From Bradyrhizobium sp. 195 (GTDB lineage Bacteria; Pseudomonadota; Alphaproteobacteria; Rhizobiales; Xanthobacteraceae), in the NCBI RefSeq assembly GCF_023101665.1, contig NZ_CP082161.1:2852001-2916000 (forward strand): a DNA stretch of 64,000 nt, written 5' to 3'. A program made the position numbers and the translations under genes. Below are positions 3,048 to 30,266 of the stretch, piece after piece. Position 1 is the first letter of the stretch, and each line of letters starts with the position of its first letter. A model generated the notes under the pieces. It ran no database searches. It was not told the origin of the DNA and was given only the letters and a program-made list of their open reading frames with translations.

Positions 3048-4127
3048 ATGTCCGCAAACAACGCCTTCCATATTGCCGTGCTCGCCGGTGACGGCATCGG
3101 TCCCGAAGTCATGGCGCCGGCCCTCGAGGTGCTGCGCAAGATCGAGCAGAAATCGGATTTGCGGTTCCGCTTTACCGAGGCTCCGGCTGGTGCCAATAAC
3201 TATCTCGCCACCGGCAAGTCGATGCCTGACACCACCATCAAGCTGTGCGAGGAGGCGGACGCGATTCTGCTCGGAGCCTGCGGTCTGCCATCGGTGCGCT
3301 ACCCCGACAATACCGAGATCGCGCCGCAGATCGAGCTGCGTTTCATCTTCGACCTCTACGCCGGCGTGCGGCCCGCGCGCCTCATTCCCGGCGTGCCGAG
3401 CCCGATCGTCGGTGCTGACCAGCGCGGCATCGATCTCGTCGTGATCCGCGAATCCACTGAGGGCCTGTTCGCCTCGATGGGCAAGGGCGTCGTCACCCAT
3501 GAGGACGCGCGCGAGACCATGGTGATCACGCGCAAAACCTCCGAACGCCTATTCGAGTTCTCGTTTCGCCTGGCGGAGCGGCGCAAGGCGCGCGGCAAGC
3601 CCGGTGCGCTCACCTGCGTCGACAAGACGAATGTGTTCAAGGCGTTTGCGTTCTTCCGCGGCATCTTCGACGAGATTGAGAAGAAGCATCCTGATGTGAA
3701 GACCGACCGGCTCTATGTCGATGCCTGCTCGGCGATGCTGGTTAAGCGGCCCTGGGATTTCGACGTGATGGTGATGGAGAACATGTTCGGCGACATCGTC
3801 TCCGACATCACCGCGAGCCTGATCGGCGGCCTCGGCATGGCGCCGTCGGCCGACATCGGTGACAAATACGCCGTGTTCCAACCCTGCCACGGCACCGCGC
3901 CCGATATCATGGGGCAGGGGAAGGCCAATCCCACCGGCATGATCTTGTCGGCGGCGATGATGCTGGACTGGCTCGCCGACAAGCACGGCATCGAGAGCGC
4001 GGCGGAAGCCGGCGAGACGATCGAGCGGGCGGTGGACCAGGTCTATGCCGGCGGCATCAAGCCGATGGAGTTCGGCGGCAGCAACGGCACGGCCGACATC
4101 ACGAAAGCGGTGCTCGCGACGCTGTAG
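3048..4127 (+). CDS. Isocitrate/isopropylmalate dehydrogenase family protein
   Basis: A 359-residue metal- and NAD(P)-dependent beta-decarboxylating dehydrogenase. Visible family features are AVLAGDGIGPEV at the N-terminus, VVIREST in the substrate loop, the KTNVFK segment with the catalytic lysine, DACSAMLVKRPWDFDVMVMENMFGDIVSD, and HGTAPDIMGQGKANP in the cofactor site. The substrate-loop sequence is neither a clear LeuB nor a clear TCA-cycle Icd, so it could use isopropylmalate, tartrate/malate or a related 2-hydroxyacid. No leuCD genes are adjacent, which argues against a leucine role. Start ATG 3048 follows AGGAA. A terminator follows. Confidence 0.85.
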   Translation: MSANNAFHIAVLAGDGIGPEVMAPALEVLRKIEQKSDLRFRFTEAPAGANNYLATGKSMPDTTIKLCEEADAILLGACGLPSVRYPDNTEIAPQIELRFIFDLYAGVRPARLIPGVPSPIVGADQRGIDLVVIRESTEGLFASMGKGVVTHEDARETMVITRKTSERLFEFSFRLAERRKARGKPGALTCVDKTNVFKAFAFFRGIFDEIEKKHPDVKTDRLYVDACSAMLVKRPWDFDVMVMENMFGDIVSDITASLIGGLGMAPSADIGDKYAVFQPCHGTAPDIMGQGKANPTGMILSAAMMLDWLADKHGIESAAEAGETIERAVDQVYAGGIKPMEFGGSNGTADITKAVLATL

Positions 4128-19462: not shown

Positions 19463-20302
19463 TCAGGCCGCGACGCGGGGCTTCGCAGCCTTGTCGGCCT
19501 GGCGCTTCGGCAAGGTCATGACATGCGTCGTGTAGAGCGTCATGCCGGTGAAGGCGAGGCCGCCGACGAGGTTGCCGAGCACGGTCGGGATCTCGTTCCA
19601 GATCAGGTAATCCAAGATGGAGAACTTTGCGCCGAGCAGCAGGCCGGACGGGAACAGGAACATGTTCACGACGGAATGCTCGAACACCATGTAGAAGAAC
19701 ACCAGGATCGGCATCCACATGGCGATGACCTTGCCGGAGACCGAGGTCGAGATCATGGCGCCGACGACTCCGGTCGAGACCATCCAGTTGCAGAGCATGC
19801 CGCGCAGGAACAGCGTCGCCATGCCGGCCGCACCGTGGGCGGCGTAGCCGAGCGTCCGGCTTTCGCCGATGATTCCGATCGCCGTGCCGACCTTGTCCGG
19901 CGGCTGCGAGAAGCCGAAGGTGGTGACGAAGGCCATCATGAAGGCGACGGTGAAGGCGCCGGCGAAATTGCCGACGAAGACGAGGCCCCAGTTGCGCAGC
20001 ACGCCACCGATCGTGACGCCAGGACGCTTGTCGATCAGGGCGAGCGGCGAGAGCACGAACACGCCGGTCAGAAGATCGAAACCCAGCAGGTACAGCATGA
20101 CGAAGCCGACCGGAAACAGGAGCGCGCCGATCAGCGGCTGGCCGGTGTTGACGTTGATCGTGACGGCGAACCATGCCGCGAGCGTGAGGATGGCGCCGGC
20201 CATGTAGGCGCGGATGATGGTATCCCGGGTGGACATGAAGATCTTGGACTCGCCCGCATCCACCATCTTGGTGACGAATTCCGAAGGCGCGAGATACGAC
20301 AT
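19463..20302 (-). CDS. Formate/nitrite transporter family channel (NirC/FocA-like)
   Basis: A 279-residue FNT-family membrane channel with six helices; it probably moves nitrite or formate across the cytoplasmic membrane. The start MSYLAPSEFVTKMVDAGESK at 20302 is chosen because AAGGAACC lies eight bases upstream; the earlier in-frame start lacks support. FNT signature regions are visible (FVGNFAGAFTVAF, LCNWMVSTGV, FEHSVVNMFLFPSGLLLGA). The closest role by context is nitrite movement, since nrtABC-narK-nasC is divergent from it and nitrite is the NasC product. Genuine nitrite specificity is inference. Confidence 0.88.
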   Translation of the reverse strand: MSYLAPSEFVTKMVDAGESKIFMSTRDTIIRAYMAGAILTLAAWFAVTINVNTGQPLIGALLFPVGFVMLYLLGFDLLTGVFVLSPLALIDKRPGVTIGGVLRNWGLVFVGNFAGAFTVAFMMAFVTTFGFSQPPDKVGTAIGIIGESRTLGYAAHGAAGMATLFLRGMLCNWMVSTGVVGAMISTSVSGKVIAMWMPILVFFYMVFEHSVVNMFLFPSGLLLGAKFSILDYLIWNEIPTVLGNLVGGLAFTGMTLYTTHVMTLPKRQADKAAKPRVAA

Positions 20303-20653
20303 CAATGGTTCCTTTTGCTTCGTAAGTGAGATCGACACGCCCCTGGCGAGAGCGCGACTGAACATCTTTGGCCGTGCGGGCCGGCCTGCCGCGCACGAGG
20401 GCTATTGAAAGTTTGGAAGCCTTGGGAATCGCGTCACGAGGACTGAGCCGGAGAGGGCCGCGAAGCAGTTGAGCTTCCGAATGCAGCCGCCAGAGGCTGC
20501 AACAATGCGGCAAGCCGCAGTCTTCGTTGACGTCCAAGGAGAAGCAAGTTGCGTGCCGCGTGCCCGCGATAAGAAAAACCTAGCGGGATCAATAGCATGG
20601 ATCTCGGCGCGGTCCGCCGGTGCAGCGCTGGTCGGCTTCTTGCTTGATCTCCT
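20303..20653. other. Intergenic region between the FNT gene and the nrtA enhancer
   Basis: About 350 bp upstream of the FNT gene. I find no sigma-54 consensus on the minus strand and no credible gene; the open frames here have no protein-like features. The promoter of the FNT-kinase operon is presumably in this stretch. Confidence 0.5.
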
Positions 20654-20686
20654 GCACAAGTTTTGTGCGTCGCACAAGAATTGAGC
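20654..20686 (+). promoter_or_regulatory. Tandem NtrC-like enhancer upstream of nrtA
   Basis: GCACAAGTTTTGTGC (20654-20668), a GTC spacer, and GCACAAGAATTGAGC (20672-20686). The first box is a perfect GCAC-N7-GTGC NtrC dimer site; the second has one mismatch (GAGC). The boxes are 18 bp apart centre to centre. The pair is centred 112 bp upstream of the -24 GG of the nrtA promoter, a normal distance for a sigma-54 enhancer. Confidence 0.72.
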
Positions 20687-20779
20687 AGACCGCAAGTTTC
20701 CCATGCGCGGCGGACATGCGGCGGCCTGCCGCAGCGCAGATAACGCGTTGATTATTATGGAGTTTCTGAGCTCACGGGC

Positions 20780-20796
20780 TTGGCATAAAGCTTGAA
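20780..20796 (+). promoter_or_regulatory. Putative sigma-54 promoter of nrtA
   Basis: TTGGCATA-N4-TTGAA: the GG (20782-20783) and the -12 element have the right 10-bp separation. The usual -12 GC is GA here, as it is in the narK promoter. Expected start of transcription is near 20807. Confidence 0.6.
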
Positions 20797-20806
20797 TGGT
20801 TCCATG

Positions 20807-20981
20807 CCGACGCCATTGAAGCCGTCCCGCGAGACTTCTCATCCGACTTGCCGACGCCACCAAGCGGGGGTCTCCCCGTCGTGCGTTGGCATGCGCCAAA
20901 GACGGCGCCGCCGGACGGACGGGCTGCTCGTGTGCACTGACGCCAATCACTTCTGCAACGACGCAAAGGACGACACTGCCT
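20807..20981 (+). promoter_or_regulatory. nrtA mRNA leader with ANTAR-type hairpin
   Basis: A predicted leader of about 175 nt. At its very 5' end GACGCC-ATTGAA-GCCGTC (20809-20826) forms a stem with one C-C mismatch and a six-base loop having A at position 1 and G at position 4, the ANTAR-target rule. The 13-mer CTGCAACGACGCA (20953-20965), with a second A1/G4 loop AACGAC, lies 16 bp before the ATG and recurs in the narK leader. A GC-rich stem lies between. NasT-type antitermination is the best reading. Confidence 0.5.
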
Positions 20982-22301
20982 ATGACCAAGCGCACCCGCC
21001 GGCCCTCGGAGACGGGCCTCAGCCGCCGTCAATTGTTGAAAGCCACCGGCTCGACCGCCGCACTTCTCGCCGCAGCAAAACTGAATTTCCCCGCCGGCGC
21101 GTTCGCGCAGGACGCAGGCCCCGAAGTCAAGGGCGCCAAGCTTGGCTTCATCGCGCTCTCCGATGCCGGCCCGCTCTTCGTCGCCAAGGACAAGGGCCTG
21201 TTCGCCAAATACGGGGTGCCCGACACCGACGTGCAGAAGCAGGCCTCCTGGGGCACCACGCGCGACAACCTCGTGCTTGGCTCGGAAGGCAACGGCATCG
21301 ACGGCGCGCATATCCTCACCCCGATGCCGTACCTTATCTCGGCCGGCAAGGTGACGCAGAACAACCAGCCGACGCCGATGTACATTTTGGCGCGGCTCAA
21401 CCTCGATGCACAGTGCATCTCGGTCGCCAAGGAATACGCCGCCCTCAAGATCGGCGCCGATGCGGCGCCGCTCAAGGTGGCCTTCGACAAGAAGAAGGCC
21501 GAGGGCAAATCGGTGAAGGTGGCGATGACCTTCCCTGGCGGTACCCATGATCTCTGGGTCCGCTATTGGCTCGCCGCCGGCGGCATCGATCCCGACAAGG
21601 ACGTCGAGACCATCACCGTGCCGCCGCCGCAGATGGTGGCGAACATGAAGGTTGGCACCATGGATGCCTTCTGCGTCGGCGAGCCGTGGCCCGGGCAGCT
21701 GGTGCATCAGGACATCGGCTACACCGCTGTCAACACCGGCGAGATCTGGAGCAAGCATCCCGAAAAGTCGCTCGGCATGCGCGCGGCCTGGGTCGACAAA
21801 AACCCGAAGGCGGCAAAAGCGATCCTGATGGCCGTGATGGAGGCGCAGCAATGGGCCGACAAGATGGAGAACAAGGAAGAGCTCGCCACCATCATGGCCA
21901 AGCGGCAGTGGATCAACTGCCCGGTCGAGGACATCGCCGATCGCGCCAAGGGCAAGTTCGACTACGGCATCCCCGGCAAGGTGATCGAGAACTCGCCGCA
22001 CATCATGAAGTACTGGCGCGACCATGCCTCCTATCCATTCCAGAGCCACGACCTCTGGTTCATGACCGAGGACATCCGCTGGGGCAAATACGAAGCCGGC
22101 TTCGACAGCAAGGCGCTGATCGCCAAGGTCAACCGCGAGGACATGTGGCGCGATGCGGCCAAGACGCTCGGTGTCGCGGCCTCCGACATTCCAACCTCCA
22201 CCTCGCGCGGCAAGGAGACTTTCTTCGACGGCAAGTTGTTCGATCCGGAAAATCCGGCTGCCTATCTGAAATCGCTCGCGATCAAGCGCGTCGAAGTCTG
22301 A
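20982..22301 (+). CDS. nrtA: Nitrate ABC transporter substrate-binding protein
   Basis: A 439-residue periplasmic nitrate-binding protein of the NrtA/CmpA family. The start MTKRTRRPSETGLSRRQLLK at 20982 gives a twin-arginine signal (SRRQLLKATG) with mature sequence after AFAQ; AAGGACG lies upstream. Family segments include LGFIALSDAGPLFVAKDKGLF, DGAHILTPMPYLI, FPGGTHDLWVRYWLAAGGIDP and DAFCVGEPWPGQLVHQDIGYT. First gene of nrtABC, the high-affinity nitrate import system. Upstream lie the NtrC-like boxes, a sigma-54 promoter and an ANTAR-type leader, so it should respond to both nitrogen limitation and nitrate. Confidence 0.93.
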   Translation: MTKRTRRPSETGLSRRQLLKATGSTAALLAAAKLNFPAGAFAQDAGPEVKGAKLGFIALSDAGPLFVAKDKGLFAKYGVPDTDVQKQASWGTTRDNLVLGSEGNGIDGAHILTPMPYLISAGKVTQNNQPTPMYILARLNLDAQCISVAKEYAALKIGADAAPLKVAFDKKKAEGKSVKVAMTFPGGTHDLWVRYWLAAGGIDPDKDVETITVPPPQMVANMKVGTMDAFCVGEPWPGQLVHQDIGYTAVNTGEIWSKHPEKSLGMRAAWVDKNPKAAKAILMAVMEAQQWADKMENKEELATIMAKRQWINCPVEDIADRAKGKFDYGIPGKVIENSPHIMKYWRDHASYPFQSHDLWFMTEDIRWGKYEAGFDSKALIAKVNREDMWRDAAKTLGVAASDIPTSTSRGKETFFDGKLFDPENPAAYLKSLAIKRVEV

Positions 22302-22309
22302 GGGAGCCA

Positions 22310-22331
22310 GCGGCCGCCCTTGGGCGGCCGC
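22310..22331 (+). other. Intercistronic hairpin between nrtA and nrtB
   Basis: GCGGCCGCCC-TT-GGGCGGCCGC, a perfect 10-bp stem, lies 8 bp after the nrtA stop and 30 bp before nrtB, followed by ATCGTCTTTTGC. It may protect nrtA mRNA or partly terminate, raising receptor over permease levels, a common pattern in ABC operons. Confidence 0.6.
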
Positions 22332-22361
22332 ATCGTCTTTTGCAGCCGGAGAGATATTGCG

Positions 22362-23258
22362 ATGAATATGCCTGCCGCCAAAATTGAGATTGAGACCGCG
22401 ACGCCTGCGGCCAGCGCCGCGCCGGTCGTTGCGATGACGCCAAAGCGTCCCCCGCGCACGGAAGCCTACGCACGCATGGCGAGGGAGACCGCCGTGCGCG
22501 TGATCCCGCCCCTGGTCGTGATCGCGCTGCTTACGCTGGTCTGGGAGCTGATCTGCCGCCGTGCCGGCTCGGCACTGCCGCCTCCGTCAAAAGTGTTCAA
22601 GGACACCAAGGAGCTGATCCTCGATCCGTTCTTCGACCATGGCGGCATCGACAAGGGCCTGTTCTGGCATCTCTCCGCCAGCCTGCAGCGCGTCGCCTTC
22701 GGCTATTCGCTCTCGGCGATCGCCGGCATCGCGCTCGGCGTGCTGGTCGGACAGTCAGTCTGGGCGATGCGCGGGCTCGATCCGCTGTTCCAGGTGCTGC
22801 GCACCATCCCGCCGCTGGCCTGGCTGCCGCTGTCGCTCGCGGCGTTCCGTGACGGCCAACCTTCGGCGATCTTCGTCATCTTCATCACCTCGATCTGGCC
22901 GATCATCATCAACACCGCGGTCGGCATCCGCAACATCCCGCAGGACTATCGCAACGTCGCTGCGGTGGTGCAGCTCAACCCGCTCGAGTTCTTCGCCAAG
23001 ATCATGATCCCGGCGGCCGCGCCTTACATCTTCACGGGCCTGCGCATCGGCATCGGGCTGTCATGGCTCGCCATCATCGCGGCTGAAATGCTGATCGGCG
23101 GCGTCGGCATCGGCTTCTTCATCTGGGACGCCTGGAACTCCTCGCATATCAGCGAGATCATCCTGGCGCTGTTCTATGTCGGCATCGTCGGCTTCGTGCT
23201 GGACCGCCTGATCGCGGGTCTCGGCAAGGTCGTCACCCGCGGCACCGCGCAGAATTGA
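22362..23258 (+). CDS. nrtB: Nitrate ABC transporter permease
   Basis: A 298-residue permease of the NitT/TauT family with six helices. The cytoplasmic ATPase-contact loop is VVQLNPLEFFAKIMIPAAAPYIFTG-like (in two parts). The N-terminus has a 60-residue Ala/Pro-rich cytoplasmic extension before the first helix. ATG 22362 is used because GGAGAG lies just upstream. It forms the homodimeric pore with NrtC as motor. It lies between nrtA and nrtC, with 13 bp to nrtC. Confidence 0.92.
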   Translation: MNMPAAKIEIETATPAASAAPVVAMTPKRPPRTEAYARMARETAVRVIPPLVVIALLTLVWELICRRAGSALPPPSKVFKDTKELILDPFFDHGGIDKGLFWHLSASLQRVAFGYSLSAIAGIALGVLVGQSVWAMRGLDPLFQVLRTIPPLAWLPLSLAAFRDGQPSAIFVIFITSIWPIIINTAVGIRNIPQDYRNVAAVVQLNPLEFFAKIMIPAAAPYIFTGLRIGIGLSWLAIIAAEMLIGGVGIGFFIWDAWNSSHISEIILALFYVGIVGFVLDRLIAGLGKVVTRGTAQN

Positions 23259-23271
23259 AGGAGAGGGGCAC

Positions 23272-24066
23272 ATGACCGCCTATCTGAAGCTCGACCATAT
23301 CGACAAGGTCTTTACCCGCGGCGCCGCGACCACCGAGGTGCTCAAGGAGATCAACCTGACGATCGAGAAGGGCGAATACGTCTCGATCATCGGCCATTCC
23401 GGTTGCGGCAAGTCGACCCTGCTCAACATCATCGCAGGCCTGACAAACGCCACCACCGGCGGCGTGCTGCTGGAAAACCGCGAGGTCAACTCGCCGGGGC
23501 CCGACCGCGCCGTGGTGTTCCAGAACCACAGCCTGTTGCCGTGGCTCACCGTCTACGAGAACGTCAGGCTCGGCGTCGACAAGGTCTTTGCCAAGACCAA
23601 GTCCCGCGCCGAGCGGGACGCCTGGGTGATGCACAATCTCAACCTCGTGCAGATGGCCCATGCCAGGGACAAGCGGCCCTCGGAGATCTCCGGCGGCATG
23701 AAGCAGCGCGTCGGCATTGCCCGGGCGCTGGCCATGGAGCCGAAGGTGCTGCTGCTCGACGAGCCATTCGGTGCGCTCGACGCGCTGACCCGCGCGCATC
23801 TGCAGGATTCGGTGATGGCGCTGCATCAGAAGCTCGGCAACACCATTTTGATGATTACCCACGATGTCGACGAGGCCGTGCTGTTGTCCGACCGCATCGT
23901 GATGATGACGAACGGACCGAGCGCGCGCATCGGCGAGGTGCTGGAGGTGCCGCTGGCGCGGCCGCGCAAGCGGCTCGATCTCGCGACCAGCGCCACCTAT
24001 CTCAAGTGCCGACAGCGCGTGCTCGAATTCCTCTACGAGCGTCATCGCTTCGTTGAGGCCGCGTAA
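23272..24066 (+). CDS. nrtC: Nitrate ABC transporter ATP-binding protein
   Basis: A 264-residue ABC ATPase. Walker A GHSGCGKST (about 41-49), Q-loop FQNHSLLPW, signature SGGMKQRVGIARAL and Walker B LLLDEPFGALDAL followed by the switch His in THDVDEA are all present. It is NrtD-like in size: it lacks the C-terminal NrtA-like regulatory domain of cyanobacterial NrtC. Last gene of the nrt operon; the narK promoter begins about 50 bp downstream. Confidence 0.92.
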   Translation: MTAYLKLDHIDKVFTRGAATTEVLKEINLTIEKGEYVSIIGHSGCGKSTLLNIIAGLTNATTGGVLLENREVNSPGPDRAVVFQNHSLLPWLTVYENVRLGVDKVFAKTKSRAERDAWVMHNLNLVQMAHARDKRPSEISGGMKQRVGIARALAMEPKVLLLDEPFGALDALTRAHLQDSVMALHQKLGNTILMITHDVDEAVLLSDRIVMMTNGPSARIGEVLEVPLARPRKRLDLATSATYLKCRQRVLEFLYERHRFVEAA

Positions 24067-24114
24067 ACCAAAGGTCAATGCGCGAAACATCCGCGCCTAA
24101 ATAATCAACATCAA

Positions 24115-24147
24115 GCTCAATCCTTGTGCGGCGCACAAGGATTGAGC
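24115..24147 (+). promoter_or_regulatory. Tandem NtrC-like enhancer upstream of narK
   Basis: A perfect 33-bp inverted repeat: GCTCAATCCTTGTGC, GGC, GCACAAGGATTGAGC. Each 15-bp arm is a GCAC-N7-GTGC NtrC-type site with one mismatch. Same layout as the nrtA enhancer (two boxes, three-base spacer), and likewise centred 112 bp upstream of the -24 GG. It also resembles a terminator stem for nrtC, but there is no T-run. Confidence 0.68.
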
Positions 24148-24240
24148 GAATCGCAAATTTAGCGTGCGAAAAAGCCCTGCGAACAATTCGGGCAATGCGA
24201 ATAACATCCTGAAATCCCTGTATTTCCAGCGTGCGCGCAA

Positions 24241-24257
24241 TTGGCACGGAAATTGAA
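24241..24257 (+). promoter_or_regulatory. Putative sigma-54 promoter of narK
   Basis: TTGGCACG-N4-TTGAA, matching the sigma-54 consensus TTGGCACG-N4-TTGCA except for GA in place of the -12 GC. Spacing between the -24 and -12 elements is correct. Expected start of transcription is near 24267. Confidence 0.68.
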
Positions 24258-24266
24258 ATGCCTTGC

Positions 24267-24403
24267 GCGACGCCAACGACGACGTCCCTCAAATCATCAA
24301 TCAGCATCGTGAACTCGCCACTGGGGCTTGGCCTCGGAGCGTGCCTCCGTAGCCGGAGGCAAAGCCTGCAACGACGCAGCGGTGAGCCTAGAAGGGATAC
24401 TCA
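24267..24403 (+). promoter_or_regulatory. narK mRNA leader with ANTAR-type hairpins
   Basis: A predicted leader of about 137 nt. The 5' hairpin GACGCC-AACGAC-GACGTC (24269-24286) has the same outer stem as in the nrtA leader and an A1/G4 hexaloop. CTGC-AACGAC-GCAG (24366-24379) is a second A1/G4 hexaloop hairpin. Just before it, TGCCTCCG-TAGC-CGGAGGCA can form a strong stem, and GGCTTGGCCTC upstream could pair instead with GAGGCAAAGCC, giving mutually exclusive folds. This fits NasT-type antitermination. Confidence 0.5.
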
Positions 24404-25783
24404 ATGACGAAGAATCCTACTTGGATTTCAGACTGGCGCCCCGAAGATGAGGCGTTCTGGAATGCGACTGGCAAGACTATCGCGCGACGCAACCTGATCT
24501 GGTCGATCGTGGCCGAGCATATCGGCTTCTCGGTCTGGCTGATCTGGAGCATCGTCACCACCAAGCTGCCGCAGGCGGGCTTCCACTACACCACCGACCA
24601 GCTGTTCCAGCTCGTCGCGGTGCCCGGGCTGATCGGCGCGTTGATGCGCTTTCCCTATACGTTCGCCGTGACGACGTTCGGCGGCCGCAACTGGACCATC
24701 TTCAGTGCGGCGATCCTGTTCATTCCGACGTTGTCGCTTGCCTATTTCGTGAGCCAGCCCGACACGCCGTTCTGGCTGATGCTGCTGATCGCTTCGACCG
24801 CGGGTCTGGGCGGCGGCAACTTCGCCTCCAGCATGACCAACATCTCCTTCTTCTTCCCTGACCGGATGAAGGGATGGGCGCTCGGCCTGAACGCCGCCGG
24901 CGGCAATATCGGTGTCTCCAGCGTGCAGCTCCTGACCCCGATCCTGATGACGCTCGCCGTGTTCAACCTGTTCCAGGCAACGCCCGTCGACGGTATCTTC
25001 CTGCAGAATGCCGGCCTGATGTGGGTGCTGCCGATCGCGATCGCGGTGTTCGGTGCGGTGTTCTTCATGAACAATCTCACCACGGCGAAATCGTCGGTGA
25101 AGAATCAGCTCGCGATCGTCAAGCGCAAGCACACCTGGATCATGGCGTATCTCTATATCGGCACGTTCGGATCCTTCATCGGCTACTCCGCCGCGTTCCC
25201 GCTGCTGATCAAGACGCAGTTCCCGCAAGTCACGATTGCGATCGCGTTCCTGGGGCCGCTGGTCGGCTCGCTGTCGCGTCCGCTCGGCGGCTGGCTCGCC
25301 GACAGGATCGGCGGCTCGATCATTACCTTCTGGAATTTCATCGTGATGGCGGGCGCGACGGTCGGCGTGCTCTACTTCGTCGGGCAGAAGGATTTCATCG
25401 GCTTCCTGTCGATGTTCCTGATCCTGTTCGTGACGACGGGCATCGGCAACGGCTCGACCTATCGCATGATCCCCTCGATCTTCCGCGAGGAGAACCTGTT
25501 CAAGGTGCGCGGCAAGGGCGATGCGGCGCGCGCGGTGGCGCTCAAGACGGCGAGCATCGAGAGCGGTGCAGCGGTCGGCTTCATCGGAGCTATCGGCGCC
25601 GTCGGTGGCTATCTGATCCCGACCGGTTTCGGCAAGTCGATTGCCCTGACCGGCGGGCCGCAGCTCGCGCTCGTGATCTATCTCGCCTTCTACGCCACCT
25701 GCCTCGCACTGACCTGGTGGTTCTATCTGCGTCGCAGCCCGCAGGGCGAAGGCGCCTCAAGCCTTGCCGGAGCGCGAGTCTGA
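24404..25783 (+). CDS. narK: MFS nitrate/nitrite transporter
   Basis: A 459-residue major facilitator protein with 12 helices, NarK/NasA type. The nitrate signature regions are visible: GLGGGNFASSMTNISFFFPDRMKGWALGLNAAGGNIG-like in helix 5 (two parts) and TGIGNGSTYRMIPSIF in helix 11. It imports nitrate and/or exports nitrite. It is the first gene of the narK-haemoglobin-flavoprotein-nasC operon. A 10-bp hairpin follows, so expression of the downstream genes may be attenuated. Confidence 0.93.
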   Translation: MTKNPTWISDWRPEDEAFWNATGKTIARRNLIWSIVAEHIGFSVWLIWSIVTTKLPQAGFHYTTDQLFQLVAVPGLIGALMRFPYTFAVTTFGGRNWTIFSAAILFIPTLSLAYFVSQPDTPFWLMLLIASTAGLGGGNFASSMTNISFFFPDRMKGWALGLNAAGGNIGVSSVQLLTPILMTLAVFNLFQATPVDGIFLQNAGLMWVLPIAIAVFGAVFFMNNLTTAKSSVKNQLAIVKRKHTWIMAYLYIGTFGSFIGYSAAFPLLIKTQFPQVTIAIAFLGPLVGSLSRPLGGWLADRIGGSIITFWNFIVMAGATVGVLYFVGQKDFIGFLSMFLILFVTTGIGNGSTYRMIPSIFREENLFKVRGKGDAARAVALKTASIESGAAVGFIGAIGAVGGYLIPTGFGKSIALTGGPQLALVIYLAFYATCLALTWWFYLRRSPQGEGASSLAGARV

Positions 25784-25801
25784 TACTTGGTATGAATCTC
25801 G

Positions 25802-25825
25802 CTTCTCCCCGTACGCGGGGAGAAG
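25802..25825 (+). other. Intercistronic hairpin between narK and the haemoglobin gene
   Basis: CTTCTCCCCG-TACG-CGGGGAGAAG, a perfect 10-bp stem 18 bp after the narK stop. No T-run follows, so partial termination or mRNA stabilisation is more likely than full termination. Confidence 0.6.
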
Positions 25826-25905
25826 ACTCTCTGATGACGTTTGACCCATGAACCTTGTTCGCAACGGCGCGCACCAAGGCAAACCGAAACAGACAGGATA
25901 ACATC

Positions 25906-26334
25906 ATGACGTCCGAACAGATCACCCTCGTCCAGCAGAGCTTTGCCAAGGTCGCACCGATATCGGAGCAGGCCGCGGTGCTGTTCTACAATCGTCTGTT
26001 CGAGTTGGCGCCGTCCGTGCGCGCAATGTTTCCCGAGGACATGACCGAGCAGCGGAAGAAGCTGATGGGCATGCTCGCCGCCGTCGTCGGTGGCCTGTCG
26101 AACCTCGACTCGATTCTTCCGGCGGCCTCTACGCTCGCCAAGCGCCACGTCGCCTATGGTGCCAAGGCCGAGCACTATCCCGTGGTCGGCGCGGCCCTGC
26201 TTTGGACGCTGGAGAAGGGGCTCGGTGAAGACTGGACGCCTGAACTCGCGAGGGCGTGGACAGACGTCTATGGCGTGCTGTCCGGCTACATGATGTCCGA
26301 GGCCTACGGCGCGCAAGCGCAGGCCGCTGAATAG
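25906..26334 (+). CDS. bjgb: Single-domain bacterial haemoglobin (Bjgb-like)
   Basis: A 142-residue globin of the flavohaemoglobin/Vitreoscilla type without a reductase domain. Tyr28 in VLFYNRLFEL is the B10 tyrosine, Gln49 is the likely E7 residue and His81 in AKRHVAYGAK is the proximal haem ligand. The start at 25906 gives the usual N-terminus (MTSEQITLVQQSF). In Bradyrhizobium the homologous haemoglobin is linked to nitrate assimilation and nitric oxide detoxification. It precedes the flavoprotein gene by 10 bp; that flavoprotein is the likely electron source. Confidence 0.92.
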   Translation: MTSEQITLVQQSFAKVAPISEQAAVLFYNRLFELAPSVRAMFPEDMTEQRKKLMGMLAAVVGGLSNLDSILPAASTLAKRHVAYGAKAEHYPVVGAALLWTLEKGLGEDWTPELARAWTDVYGVLSGYMMSEAYGAQAQAAE

Positions 26335-26344
26335 GAGATGCCTC

Positions 26345-27562
26345 GTGAGTGAACCGCTGGTCATCGTCGGTAACGGTATGGCGGCCGCGCGTCTGGTCGA
26401 CGAGCTCGCCAAGACCGCACTCGGCCGCTACGCGGTCGCCGTGATCGGTGAGGAACCGCGGCTCGCTTACAACCGCGTGCTGCTCTCATCCGTGCTGGCC
26501 GGCGAGACCGGCTCGCACGAGATCGAGCTCCGGCCGGCCGATTGGTGGCGCCATCGCGGCGTCACGGTGCGCTACGGCTATCGCGTCACCGAAATCGATG
26601 TCGGCCGCCGCGAGCTGAAGATCGAAGGCGAAGAGAGCATGGAATATTCCAAGCTCGTGCTCGCCACGGGGTCGACGCCGCTGCGGCTGAACGTGCCCGG
26701 CGCCGATCTCGTCGGCGTGCACACCTTTCGCGACACCCGCGATGTCGACCTGTTGCTGACGCTGGCTGCAGCGAAGAAGCGCGTCGTCGTCGTCGGCGGC
26801 GGGCTGCTCGGACTTGAAGCAGCCTACGGCCTCGCCAAGGCCGGCGCGCCGGTGACGCTGCTGCACCTCATGGACCGGCTGATGGAGCGTCAGCTCGATG
26901 GGTCGGCCGCCGATCTGCTCAAGACGCTGGTCGAGCGCAAAGGCATCCGCATCCTGCTCAACGCCTCGACCGCACGCATCCATGGCGATGGTCATGTCGA
27001 AGCCGTCGAGCTTGCCGACGGCAGCCGCATCGAGGCCGACGCCGTGATCTTCGCGGCGGGCATCAAGCCGAGCGCGGCGCTGGCGAAAGAGGCGGGGATC
27101 GCGGTCAATCGCGGCATCGTCGTCAACGACGTCATGCAGACGTCCTCGCCCGACATCTTCGCACTCGGCGAATGCGCCGAGCATCGCGGCACCTGCTATG
27201 GCCTGGTCGAGCCCGCCTATGAGCAGGCGCGGATGCTGGCGCGGCATCTCGCCGGACGTCCTGCTTCCTATCAGGGCAGCGTGGTCTCGACCAATCTGAA
27301 GGTCTCCGGCGTCAGCGTGTTCTCGGCGGGCGACTTCATGGGCGGGGAGGGCAGCGAGAGCCTCGTGCTGACCGATCGCAGGCGCGGCACCTACAAGAAG
27401 CTCGTGATCGCCGACGGACGGCTCACCGGCGCCGTGCTGATCGGCGATACCGCCGATGCGCTCTGGTACCTCGAGCTGATCCGCAATCGCGACAAGGTGG
27501 CGGCCATCCGCACCGACATGATGTTCGGCCGCGCGCTCGCGCTTCCTTCGAAAGCAGCCTGA
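26345..27562 (+). CDS. flp: FAD-dependent NAD(P)H oxidoreductase (Flp) of the nitrate operon
   Basis: A 405-residue flavoprotein of the NirB N-terminal/rubredoxin-reductase type. FAD-binding VIVGNGMAAARLVDEL at the N-terminus, NAD-binding VVVVGGGLLGLEAAYGLAKAG-like at about 140-160 and the second FAD motif around DIFALGECAEHRG are visible. The start is GTG 26345, 10 bp after the haemoglobin stop. It overlaps no gene but nearly touches nasC (1 bp apart). By context it supplies electrons to NasC and possibly to the haemoglobin; it lacks the iron-sulfur and sirohaem parts of nitrite reductase. Confidence 0.9.
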   Translation: MSEPLVIVGNGMAAARLVDELAKTALGRYAVAVIGEEPRLAYNRVLLSSVLAGETGSHEIELRPADWWRHRGVTVRYGYRVTEIDVGRRELKIEGEESMEYSKLVLATGSTPLRLNVPGADLVGVHTFRDTRDVDLLLTLAAAKKRVVVVGGGLLGLEAAYGLAKAGAPVTLLHLMDRLMERQLDGSAADLLKTLVERKGIRILLNASTARIHGDGHVEAVELADGSRIEADAVIFAAGIKPSAALAKEAGIAVNRGIVVNDVMQTSSPDIFALGECAEHRGTCYGLVEPAYEQARMLARHLAGRPASYQGSVVSTNLKVSGVSVFSAGDFMGGEGSESLVLTDRRRGTYKKLVIADGRLTGAVLIGDTADALWYLELIRNRDKVAAIRTDMMFGRALALPSKAA

Positions 27563-27563
27563 T

Positions 27564-30266
27564 ATGACGGCGATCGACCCCACGCTTCGTGCCACCAAGA
27601 CGACCTGTCCCTATTGCGGCGTCGGCTGCGGTGTGTTGGCGACGCCCGACGGCAAGGGTGGCGCGGCGATCGCCGGTGACCCTGATCATCCCGCCAATTT
27701 CGGCCGGCTGTGCTCCAAGGGCTCCGCGCTCGGTGAGACCGTCGGGCTGGAAGGCCGTCTGCTCTACCCGATGATCCGTTGCAAGGGCGTGCTGGAGCGC
27801 GTGGCCTGGAGCGATGCGCTCGACCACGTCGCCCATCGCATGCAGCACATCGTGGCCCGCGACGGCGCCGACGCGGTCGCGTTCTATCTCTCCGGCCAGC
27901 TGCTGACCGAGGACTATTACGTCGCCAACAAGCTGATGAAGGGCTTTGTCGGCACGGCGAATGTCGATACCAATTCGCGGCTCTGCATGTCGTCATCGGT
28001 CGCCGGCCATCGCCGCGCCTTCGGCGCCGACACGGTGCCCGGCTGCTACGAGGATCTCGATCAGGCCGATTTGCTCGTCTTCGTCGGCTCGAACGCGGCT
28101 TGGTGCCATCCGGTGCTGTTCCAGCGCATGCTGAAGAACCGTGGGGAGCGCGGCGCGCGCATGATCGTGATCGATCCGCGCCGCACGGACACCGCTGATG
28201 ACGTCGATCTGTTCCTGGGGCTCAAGCCCGGCACGGATACCGCGCTGTTTTCCGGCCTGTTCGTCCATCTCGCCGACGATGGTGCGTTGGACCGGGATTA
28301 TATCGCGAACAACACGTCCGGTTTTGATGACGCGCTGGCGCGCGCGCGCAACATCGCCGGCAGCGTCACCGCGACCGCGCTCGCCACGGGCCTCTCCGAG
28401 CAGGATGTCGCCACCTTCTTCAAGATGTTCCGGGACACTGAGCGCGTCGTCACCCTCTACTCGCAGGGCGTCAACCAGTCGGCTCAGGGCACCGACAAGG
28501 TCAACGCGATCCTGAATTGCCATCTCGCCACCGGGCGCATCGGCAAGCCGGGCGCCTCGCCGTTCTCGCTCACCGGTCAGCCCAACGCGATGGGCGGGCG
28601 CGAGGTCGGCGGCCTCGCCAATATGCTGGCAGCCCACATGGGCTTCACGCCGCCCGACATCGATCGCGTCAGGCGGTTCTGGAAGGCGCCGCACATCGCC
28701 ACCCATGAAGGGTTGAAGGCGGTGCAGCTGTTCGAGGCCATCAACCGCGGCGAGGTCAAGGCGCTCTGGGTGATGGGCACCAACCCGGCGGTGTCGCTGC
28801 CCGATGCCGATTTCGTGCGCGAAGCGCTGAAGAAACTCGAACTGTTCGTGGTCTCCGAGAACGTGCTCTCCAACGACACGGTCGAGGCCGGACCGCATGT
28901 GCTGCTGCCGGCTCTCGCCTGGGGCGAGAAGTCGGGCACGGTGACCAATTCTGAGCGCCGCATCTCGCGCCAGCGTTCGTTCCTGCCGGCGCCGGGCGAG
29001 GCCCGCCCCGATTGGTGGATCCTGAGCGAGACCGCCAAACGTCTCGGCTTCGGCGACAGCTTCAATTACAAATCCGCCGCCGATATCTTTCGTGAGCACG
29101 CCGCGCTCTCGGCCTTCGAGAACGAGGGCAGTCGCGATTTCGACATCGGCGCGCTGACCGAGTTGTCGGACGAAGGCTTCGATGCCTTGAAGCCAGTGCA
29201 GTGGCCGGTGCGCGAAGGCGAGGCGCCCGGCGAGCGTTTCTTTGCGAAGGGCGGCTTCTTCACCAATGACGGCAAGGGACGCTTCGTCGCCCCGGAGGTG
29301 CCGTCGCTGCGCAGCGAGACCGGTGCCTCGCGTCCACTCAGACTCAACACCGGACGCATCCGCGACCAGTGGCACACCATGACGCGCACCGGCCTCAGCC
29401 AGCGGCTGGGCGCGCACCTGCCCGAGCCCTTCGTCGAGATTCACCCCGATGACGCCAGCAAATACGGCATCGTCCACGACGGCTACGCCCGCATCACGAC
29501 CGATTACGGCCATTGCATCCTGAAGGCCCTGGTCAGCGACCGCCAGCAGCGCGGCGCGCTTTTCGTCCCGATCCACTGGAGCGCGATGAATAGCTCTCAT
29601 GGCCGCGTCGGGTCGCTGGTGCAGTCGTTCACTGATCCGTTCTCGGGCCAGCCCGAGTCCAAGGCGACGCCGGCTGCGATTGCACCTTACGAATACGTCT
29701 TCCGCGGTTTCGCACTGTCGCGCAGGCAGCTCGATCTGCCGCCGAACCTATTGTGGGCTCGCGTCACGGTGGCGGGGGGCTTCGGTTATCTGTTCGCCGA
29801 CAACGCCGATCTGTCGCGCTGGCCGGCCTGGCTCGGCGGCGTCGCCGGCGAGGACGTCGCCGAATATCGCGATTTCGGCGGCGGCATCTATCGCGCGGCT
29901 TCGTTTGCCGGCGATCGCATCGAGGCCTGCCTGTTCGTCGGCCCCGGGCACGACGCCGGCGATTGGGAGGTGGTCAGAAGTGCCTTTGCGGCCGATCACG
30001 TCACCGACGATCAGCGCCGCTTGCTGCTGTCGGGCAAGTCGACCGAGGGGACAGCCTCGACCGGGCCGATCGTCTGCGCCTGCTTCGGCGTCGGCCGCGG
30101 CACCATCTGCGACAGCATCGCCGCTGGCGCGCGCACGGCGGCCGAGATCGGCGCCAAGCTCAAGGCCGGCACCAATTGCGGCTCCTGCATCCCCGAGCTG
30201 AAGCGGCTGATTGCGACGACGGAAGTACCGGTGAAGCAGGCGAAAGTCGCGAGCGCGGTGGGGTAG
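27564..30266 (+). CDS. nasC: Assimilatory nitrate reductase catalytic subunit
   Basis: A 900-residue molybdenum bis-MGD enzyme that reduces nitrate to nitrite in the cytoplasm. N-terminal [4Fe-4S] ligands are Cys15, 18, 22 and 50 (TCPYCGVGCGV, RLCSKG). Cys141 in NSRLCMSSS is the expected Mo ligand. The C-terminus after about 830 carries a BFD-like [2Fe-2S] domain, CACFGVGRGTI and TNCGSCIPELK, typical of NasA/NasC-type reductases that receive electrons from a flavoprotein. It is the last gene of the operon. No nitrite reductase gene lies in the window. Confidence 0.94.
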   Translation: MTAIDPTLRATKTTCPYCGVGCGVLATPDGKGGAAIAGDPDHPANFGRLCSKGSALGETVGLEGRLLYPMIRCKGVLERVAWSDALDHVAHRMQHIVARDGADAVAFYLSGQLLTEDYYVANKLMKGFVGTANVDTNSRLCMSSSVAGHRRAFGADTVPGCYEDLDQADLLVFVGSNAAWCHPVLFQRMLKNRGERGARMIVIDPRRTDTADDVDLFLGLKPGTDTALFSGLFVHLADDGALDRDYIANNTSGFDDALARARNIAGSVTATALATGLSEQDVATFFKMFRDTERVVTLYSQGVNQSAQGTDKVNAILNCHLATGRIGKPGASPFSLTGQPNAMGGREVGGLANMLAAHMGFTPPDIDRVRRFWKAPHIATHEGLKAVQLFEAINRGEVKALWVMGTNPAVSLPDADFVREALKKLELFVVSENVLSNDTVEAGPHVLLPALAWGEKSGTVTNSERRISRQRSFLPAPGEARPDWWILSETAKRLGFGDSFNYKSAADIFREHAALSAFENEGSRDFDIGALTELSDEGFDALKPVQWPVREGEAPGERFFAKGGFFTNDGKGRFVAPEVPSLRSETGASRPLRLNTGRIRDQWHTMTRTGLSQRLGAHLPEPFVEIHPDDASKYGIVHDGYARITTDYGHCILKALVSDRQQRGALFVPIHWSAMNSSHGRVGSLVQSFTDPFSGQPESKATPAAIAPYEYVFRGFALSRRQLDLPPNLLWARVTVAGGFGYLFADNADLSRWPAWLGGVAGEDVAEYRDFGGGIYRAASFAGDRIEACLFVGPGHDAGDWEVVRSAFAADHVTDDQRRLLLSGKSTEGTASTGPIVCACFGVGRGTICDSIAAGARTAAEIGAKLKAGTNCGSCIPELKRLIATTEVPVKQAKVASAVG

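What the first reader, a model, noticed from the sequence alone, without database searches (positions are those of the whole stretch)
20654..24257. Two promoters with identical NtrC/sigma-54 geometry
nrtA and narK each have two 15-bp NtrC-like boxes joined by three bases (18 bp between centres). In both, the 33-bp pair is centred exactly 112 bp upstream of the -24 GG of a TTGGCA-N6-TTGAA promoter. Both share the same unusual -12 (TTGAA, not TTGCA). The boxes differ between copies while spacing is exact, so geometry seems to be under selection. It suggests co-ordinate, ammonium-repressed expression of uptake and reduction genes.
Basis: partly seen in the sequence, partly recalled or inferred. 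Interest (0 to 1): 0.72.

Follow-up and report, generated by a model that had tools for sequence, protein, structure and literature searches.

The report
Shared enhancer for nitrate uptake genes
In this soil bacterium the genes for taking up and reducing nitrate appear to be switched on by a standard nitrogen-starvation enhancer with fixed spacing, and one copy of it seems to drive two operons in opposite directions.

Summary
nrtA and narK each carry two 15-bp GC-N11-GC boxes 18 bp apart, centred 112 bp from the -24 GG of a TTGGCA-N6-TTGAA promoter. A pattern shaped on them finds only these two places in the 9.1-Mb genome.

The layout is larger than described. The nrtA doublet also faces a divergent consensus sigma-54 promoter for fnt (formate/nitrite transporter family), 113 bp on its other side. 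All 19 loci with fnt have that promoter at 110-113 bp; 0 of 57 scored loci without fnt do. A third box, an IHF-like site 35 bp from GG, and NasT-type hairpins at about +2 accompany it.

Exact 112-bp spacing is not a genus rule: 19 of 45 nrtA loci have it, range 111-138. nrtA and narK promoters look like diverged duplicates, so the match is partly inherited; within the fnt-bearing set it is nevertheless constrained (1 change against 13).

Most likely: NtrC/sigma-54 control, probably IHF-assisted, plus NasT antitermination. This is a known kind of regulation with a shared two-way enhancer as its unusual feature. Protein binding is untested.

The parts
19463..20365 (-). fnt, formate/nitrite transporter family gene, divergent from nrtA
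   Evidence: TIGR00790 at 127.9 bits, below its cut-off of 232.3
20496..20511 (-). hexaloop hairpin (ATTGTT loop) in the predicted fnt leader
   Evidence: 16 of 19 fnt leaders at this position, shuffled leaders 1.1%
20520..20531 (-). possible first hexaloop hairpin (AACGAA loop, 3-bp stem here) of the fnt leader
   Evidence: meets the 4-pair test in only 5 of 19 leaders
20543..20558 (-). sigma-54 promoter of fnt, CGGCACGCAACTTGCT, GG 113 bp from the doublet centre
   Evidence: 19 of 19 loci with fnt, 0 of 57 scored loci without
20635..20649 (.). weak fourth box, about 140 bp from the nrtA GG
   Evidence: absent or poor in some loci (L018, L019, L036)
20654..20668 (.). NtrC-like box 1 of the nrtA/fnt doublet
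20672..20686 (.). NtrC-like box 2 of the nrtA/fnt doublet
   Evidence: all four GC ends kept in 42 of 45 doublets
20692..20706 (.). third box, centred 83 bp from GG
   Evidence: 1.31 bits per column against 0.50 and 0.36 in the flanks
20741..20753 (-). IHF-like site TAACGCGTTGATT, centred 35 bp from GG
   Evidence: 9 of 9 consensus letters
20780..20796 (+). sigma-54 promoter of nrtA, TTGGCATAAAGCTTGAA
20809..20826 (+). NasT-type hairpin P1 (ATTGAA loop) at about +2 to +3 of the nrtA leader
   Evidence: 44 of 45 leaders, shuffled 0.7%
20954..20965 (+). possible second hexaloop hairpin (AACGAC) of the nrtA leader
   Evidence: 15 of 45 leaders
20982..24066 (+). nrtABC nitrate ABC transporter genes
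   Evidence: NrtB and NrtC models above cut-off; NrtA only by weaker match and context
24095..24109 (.). weak fourth box, 141 bp from the narK GG
24115..24129 (.). NtrC-like box 1 of the narK doublet
24133..24147 (.). NtrC-like box 2 of the narK doublet
24153..24167 (.). third box, centred 83 bp from GG
   Evidence: 1.69 bits against 1.36 and 1.32 in the flanks
24202..24214 (-). IHF-like site TAACATCCTGAAA, centred 35 bp from GG
   Evidence: 7 of 9 letters only; same place in 19 of 20 narK loci
24241..24257 (+). sigma-54 promoter of narK, TTGGCACGGAAATTGAA
24269..24286 (+). NasT-type hairpin P1 (AACGAC loop)
   Evidence: 20 of 20 leaders
24366..24379 (+). NasT-type hairpin P2 (AACGAC loop)
   Evidence: 20 of 20 leaders
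24404..30266 (+). narK, single-domain globin (bjgb), flp, nasC
   Evidence: several models below cut-off; order as in blr2806-09 of PMC4724949

Best explanation
These are NtrC-activated sigma-54 promoters of a nitrate-assimilation regulon with a second, nitrate-responsive layer in the leader RNA. Phosphorylated NtrC (low nitrogen) binds the doublet and its flanking boxes; IHF bends the DNA about 35 bp upstream of the -24 element; NtrC then remodels sigma-54 polymerase at the TTGGCA-N6-TTGAA promoters of nrtA and narK. At the nrtA locus the same near-palindromic doublet also serves a divergent consensus sigma-54 promoter for fnt. Hairpins with A..G hexaloops, beginning almost at the first transcribed base, let NasT, freed from NasS by nitrate, prevent termination. 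Shown here: the motifs, their places and their conservation. Published: lower nrtA, nrtB, nirA and fnt expression in DOA9 rpoN mutants; NasT-dependent narK and nirA expression. Inferred: NtrC and IHF binding, use of one enhancer in both directions, ammonium repression.
For: Doublet, spacing and promoters. Divergent fnt promoter in 19 of 19 fnt loci and 0 of 57 scored others. All four GC ends kept in 42 of 45 nrtA doublets. A matrix trained on nrtA/narK boxes peaks before glnK2 at 114 and 93 bp (8.4 and 7.4 against a maximum of 4.0 in 300 column permutations), and before nirA at 103 and 131 bp (8.6 and 3.7 against a maximum of -4.9). NtrC has GAFTGA and NasT is encoded. IHF-like sites at 35-37 bp with 7 or more of 9 letters in 30 of 45 nrtA, and at 35 bp in 19 of 20 narK, 13 of 19 fnt and 14 of 30 nirA. 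Hairpin P1 in 44 of 45 nrtA and 20 of 20 narK leaders. PMC13207237, PMC4724949 and PMC6759348 (passages).
Against: No binding or start-site data were seen. 18 bp between centres is about 1.7 helical turns, unlike the enteric spacing (recalled). nrtA and narK depart from the -12 consensus C. nirA lacks the doublet, and its 83-bp place has GC at both ends in 0 of 30. glnK2 shows no IHF-like site above shuffles (5.90 against 5.96), and narK reaches at most 7 of 9 letters. The fnt first hairpin passes in only 5 of 19. narK goes up, not down, in a nasT mutant under denitrifying conditions (PMC6759348).
Confidence: 0.72

Rival explanations
1. The boxes belong to NtrX, the regulator encoded next to NtrC. 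NtrX would bind here and either repress or modulate, with another activator supplying the sigma-54 remodelling.
For: GCACAA-N3-TTGTGC fits both published NtrX motifs, CAAN3-5TTG and GCAN9TGC (PMC9223101, passages). That paper also says NtrYX affects nitrate uptake in other bacteria.
Against: NtrX of this genome lacks GAFTGA, so it should not activate sigma-54 by itself. CAA/TTG is not kept in many nirA and glnK2 boxes. The same motif stands before glnK2, whose usual activator is NtrC (recalled).
Confidence: 0.14
2. The doublet is one site for a single dimer that reads the inner palindrome TTGTGC-N3-GCACAA, for example a PhaR-like repressor; the outer half-sites are incidental.
For: The inner half-sites are the best conserved. 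The perfect core occurs once more in the genome, before a gene that looks like a phasin (the phasin and PhaR reading is recalled, not tested).
Against: All four GC ends are kept in 42 of 45 nrtA doublets and the outer halves in 20 of 20 narK doublets. The third site lacks matching outer halves and has no sigma-54 match at score 17 in its locus.
Confidence: 0.05
3. The identical 112-bp geometry is inherited: narK's promoter is an old duplicate of nrtA's, and the exact spacing is not needed.
For: In-register identity is 50.5% against 24.0% out of register, and 36.6% against 25.6% (highest offset 30.2%) outside boxes and IHF site. Both leaders begin with GACGCC hairpins. nrtA spacing drifts elsewhere in the genus.
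Against: The unrelated fnt side keeps 110-113 bp. Within the fnt set spacing changed once against 13 changes in GG-to-ATG. This rival concerns why the spacing matches and can be true together with the main explanation; its odds are for descent being the main cause.
Confidence: 0.45

Closest known systems
Klebsiella oxytoca nas operon (NtrC plus NasR antitermination)
   Same: General nitrogen control by Ntr proteins combined with a nitrate-responsive ANTAR antiterminator on the leader (stated in PMC5424462, passages)
   Different: Here NasS-NasT rather than NasR, several separate operons, and a shared divergent enhancer
[quoted passage not shown]
   Same: Same genes in the same order; NasT dependence and predicted leader hairpins of narK and nirA are published (PMC4724949, PMC6759348, passages)
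   Different: The NtrC doublet, -24/-12 elements, IHF-like site and fnt-nrtA shared enhancer were not in the passages read
E. coli glnA enhancer (recalled)
   Same: Two strong NtrC sites a little over 100 bp upstream of a sigma-54 promoter, weaker sites closer in
   Different: Sites about 32 bp apart rather than 18; serves one direction

Membership tests
sigma-54 promoter | GG at -24 and G at -13 with 10 bases between (C at -12 is consensus preference) | tested here: met
   GG-N10-G in nrtA, narK and fnt. The C at -12 is present in fnt but replaced by A in nrtA and narK
sigma-54 promoter | Needs RpoN for expression | not testable with these tools
   Published for nrtA, nrtB, nirA and fnt in DOA9 (PMC13207237, passages)
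NtrC enhancer | Palindromic GC-N11-GC sites about 80-150 bp upstream | tested here: met
   motif TGC-N11-GCA as in PMC10746234
NtrC enhancer | A sigma-54-competent NtrC in the genome | tested here: met
   L087 has GAFTGA
NtrC enhancer | NtrC binding and ammonium repression | not testable with these tools
   no binding or expression data seen for NtrC here
IHF-assisted promoter | IHF consensus between enhancer and promoter | tested here: inconclusive
   nrtA 24 of 45 with 8 or 9 of 9 letters; narK at most 7 of 9 but at 35 bp in 19 of 20; shuffle means 6.3; fnt 7.32 against 6.23
ANTAR (NasT) leader | Hairpin with A1/G4 hexaloop | tested here: met
   P1 in 44 of 45 nrtA and 20 of 20 narK leaders
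ANTAR (NasT) leader | Two such hairpins, the second overlapping a terminator | tested here: inconclusive
   Second loop in 20 of 20 narK but 15 of 45 nrtA; terminator overlap not tested
NtrX site | CAAN3-5TTG or GCAN9TGC | tested here: met
   Met by nrtA/narK boxes by sequence, not by many nirA/glnK2 boxes. A motif match alone does not make it an NtrX site
NtrX as direct sigma-54 activator | GAFTGA loop | tested here: not met
   L094 lacks it

The most novel reading that the evidence does not exclude
The near-palindromic doublet is one bidirectional enhancer whose place midway (112 and 113 bp) between two divergent sigma-54 promoters, each with its own IHF-like bend, is kept because it must serve both. 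Spacing is then locked only where the enhancer is shared: 2 of 19 loci with fnt depart from 112, against 4 of 5 loci of the same clade without fnt (few independent events, so only suggestive). The conserved -12 GA would tune nrtA and narK relative to the consensus GC of fnt.
Probability: 0.3. Interest if true: 0.58.

Novelty: new variant of a known kind. Interest (0 to 1): 0.42.

Why it matters
It gives a concrete, testable promoter layout for nitrate assimilation in Bradyrhizobium, a genus of legume symbionts in which NasC can generate NO (PMC4724949). It also shows that searches that require GC at -12 can miss such promoters: the 2026 DOA9 study lists an inverted repeat inside the predicted leader as the nrtA RpoN site. 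A natural, nearly symmetric enhancer between two divergent sigma-54 promoters would allow clean tests of how spacing and orientation affect enhancer action.

Tried and rejected
Rfam search of the window gave no match at gathering scores, so the leader hairpins rest on motif and conservation. RegR control through the published putative narK boxes: by sequence they fall in the leader hairpin region, and that paper saw no RegR shift on this promoter (PMC4064962, passages). glnII as an NtrC control: I did not identify it among the three PF00120 hits. glnK1 (L085): no sigma-54 match at score 17 upstream of the gene. Other genome hits of the core palindrome do not form the full doublet. Shared box places with nirA: an earlier reading that nirA also has a box at 83 bp did not hold when both GC ends were required (0 of 30; 103 bp 6 of 30; 131 bp 15 of 30), and the matrix score at 83 lies below the control maximum. 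glnK2 at 93 bp passes the matrix test but has both GC ends in only 1 of 30.

Rows dropped. Of 80 relatives fetched, L033 was left out because its nrtA match did not reach the start, and L042 and L051 because their upstream DNA was short. Of the 78 rows (window included), L035 and L043 could not be scored on the minus strand. The nrtA counts of 44 or 45 keep the window, L003-L050, L057 and L059 where doublet and sigma-54 scores reached 17; this leaves out Rhodopseudomonas (L038, L045, L048), which have a different promoter and no clear doublet, L043, which has the TTGAA promoter but no doublet found in its short upstream DNA, and the more distant loci, where most lack a doublet. So the percentages are conditional on having the doublet. 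The tree used 44 (without L050). nirA and glnK2 used the 30 loci returned from 60 genomes each; one search used 26 of the 30 nirA loci, all 30.
Full report
What is in the sequence. The window lies at G000:C1:2852001-2916000 of a 9.1-Mb genome; it is a Bradyrhizobium by inference, since the closest named relatives are. It carries nrtABC (20982-24066) and narK-bjgb-flp-nasC (24404-30266). NrtB and NrtC pass their model cut-offs; NrtA, NarK, the globin, Flp, NasC and Fnt match below cut-off and are named with the help of gene order. The order is that of blr2803-05 and blr2806-09 of B. japonicum USDA110 (PMC4724949, passages). A pattern shaped on the two doublets finds no third in the genome, and the reversed control finds none.

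A third box follows the doublet after 5 bp (20692-20706, 24153-24167). In nrtA its columns carry 1.31 bits against 0.50 and 0.36 in the flanks; in narK 1.69 against 1.36 and 1.32, a weaker contrast because those 20 loci are closely related. A weak fourth box lies 140-141 bp from GG. An IHF-like site lies about 35 bp upstream of GG: with 7 or more of 9 letters at 35-37 bp in 30 of 45 nrtA, and at 35 bp in 19 of 20 narK, 13 of 19 fnt and 14 of 30 nirA promoters. Best matches average 7.64, 6.95, 7.32 and 7.17 against 6.26, 6.31, 6.23 and 6.48 in shuffles; glnK2 has none (5.90 against 5.96).

On the minus strand CGGCACGCAACTTGCT (20558 to 20543) points at fnt (19463-20365), its GG 113 bp from the doublet centre. 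Of 78 rows examined, 19 have fnt divergent within the fetched DNA and all 19 have this promoter at 110-113 bp with score 18 or more. Of 59 without fnt, 57 could be scored and none does (best 17.5).

Leader RNA. A hairpin with an A..G.. hexaloop starts 26-27 nt after the -24 GG, at about +2, in 44 of 45 nrtA and 20 of 20 narK leaders; shuffled leaders give 0.7%. A1 and G4 were required by the search; the other letters vary between loci (ATTGAA, ATTGAT, ATCGAT, ATTGTA, AATGAA, ATCGAC). narK has a second such loop in 20 of 20, nrtA in 15 of 45, and nirA has one in 30 of 30. fnt has one at 51-53 in 16 of 19, but the one expected nearest its start in only 5 of 19. NasT-dependent narK and nirA expression is published for aerobic nitrate assimilation (PMC4724949), and NasT hairpins for narK and nirA are predicted in PMC6759348 (passages). 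The same paper reports narK up in a nasT mutant under denitrifying conditions, which a simple NasT-activator model does not explain.

Is the geometry under selection? On an nrtB tree of 44 loci the doublet-to-GG length needs 15 changes and GG-to-ATG 33. Within the 19 fnt-bearing loci the counts are 1 and 13 for nrtA and 5 and 16 for fnt; narK has 2 and 8 in 17 of them. The comparison intervals are 1.4 to 2.3 times longer, so for fnt the difference is slight; for nrtA it is large. Over 45 nrtA loci the spacing is 112 in 19, 113 in 10, 114 in 6, 126 in 4, 111 in 2, 116 in 2, 115 in 1 and 138 in 1. nrtA and narK regions are 50.5% identical in register against 24.0% out of register, and 36.6% against 25.6% outside boxes and IHF site, which suggests an old duplication. 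nirA is barely above its offsets outside motifs (30.8% and 29.8%; highest offsets 30.2% and 29.3%), glnK2 is not.

Which protein? Nine strong sigma-54 activator domains are encoded. NtrC (L087) has GAFTGA; NtrX (L094), about 4.4 kb away, does not. The boxes match the NtrC motif TGC-N11-GCA of S. meliloti (PMC10746234, passages) in their GC ends, and NtrX motifs of Brucella and Rhodobacter sphaeroides (PMC9223101, passages). The matrix trained on nrtA/narK finds boxes before glnK2 at 114 and 93 bp and before nirA at 103 and 131 bp above all 300 permuted controls. nirA therefore shares the 103-bp place but not the doublet, and its 83-bp place is not supported. This favours NtrC; a modulating NtrX is not excluded. 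A Caulobacter preprint reports NtrC ChIP peaks at narK and nasT, though that NtrC lacks GAFTGA (PMC10274813, passages).

The -12 element. GA stands at -12 in every nrtA and narK promoter counted and TTGA in 30 of 30 glnK2 promoters; nirA has TTGA in 13 and TTGT in 17; fnt has TTGC in 19 of 19. It may explain why the DOA9 study chose CGGGGGTTCCCCCGT as the nrtA RpoN site (PMC13207237, passages). In DOA9 (L020) that sequence lies 84 bp downstream of the conserved GG, inside the predicted leader, while the conserved promoter and doublet stand at 112 bp.

Literature. Nine searches listed no paper that I could recognise as describing the doublet or a shared fnt-nrtA enhancer. Only passages of thirteen papers were read, supplements were not available, and Franck et al. 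2015 on the B. japonicum NtrC regulon is not held, so earlier description of NtrC control cannot be excluded.

Verdict. A known kind of regulation (NtrC/sigma-54, probably with IHF, plus ANTAR antitermination) in a variant layout: one near-palindromic doublet serving two divergent promoters at equal distance, with the layout repeated at narK and in part at nirA.

Noticed in passing
G000:C1:5165156-5165200 (L106, L108): Two copies of a TTGTGC-N3-GCACAA-like palindrome 30 bp apart lie upstream of a minus-strand gene that looks like a phasin; possibly PhaR sites (recalled, not tested).
   Followed up: partly
L146-L175, upstream of glnK2: All 30 glnK2 promoters have TGGCACGG-type -24 and TTGA at -12, with boxes about 114 and 93 bp upstream, and GC-N11-GC at 153 bp in 26 of 30.
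   Followed up: partly
L020 (Bradyrhizobium sp. DOA9) 3500-3514: The published nrtA RpoN site lies inside the predicted leader, 84 bp downstream of the conserved -24 GG.
   Followed up: yes
L058-L082, mostly Methylobacterium nrtA loci: Several show one GC-N11-GC-like box ending in TTTGTGC instead of a doublet, and a CTGC -12 element.
   Followed up: no
20718-20732 and 24179-24193: A further GC-N11-GC sequence sits 57 bp from GG in both promoters; it may be a low-affinity site.
   Followed up: no
narK leader, about 24340-24370: The RegR boxes proposed for blr2806 in PMC4064962 resemble this leader hairpin, and that paper saw no RegR binding to the fragment.
   Followed up: partly
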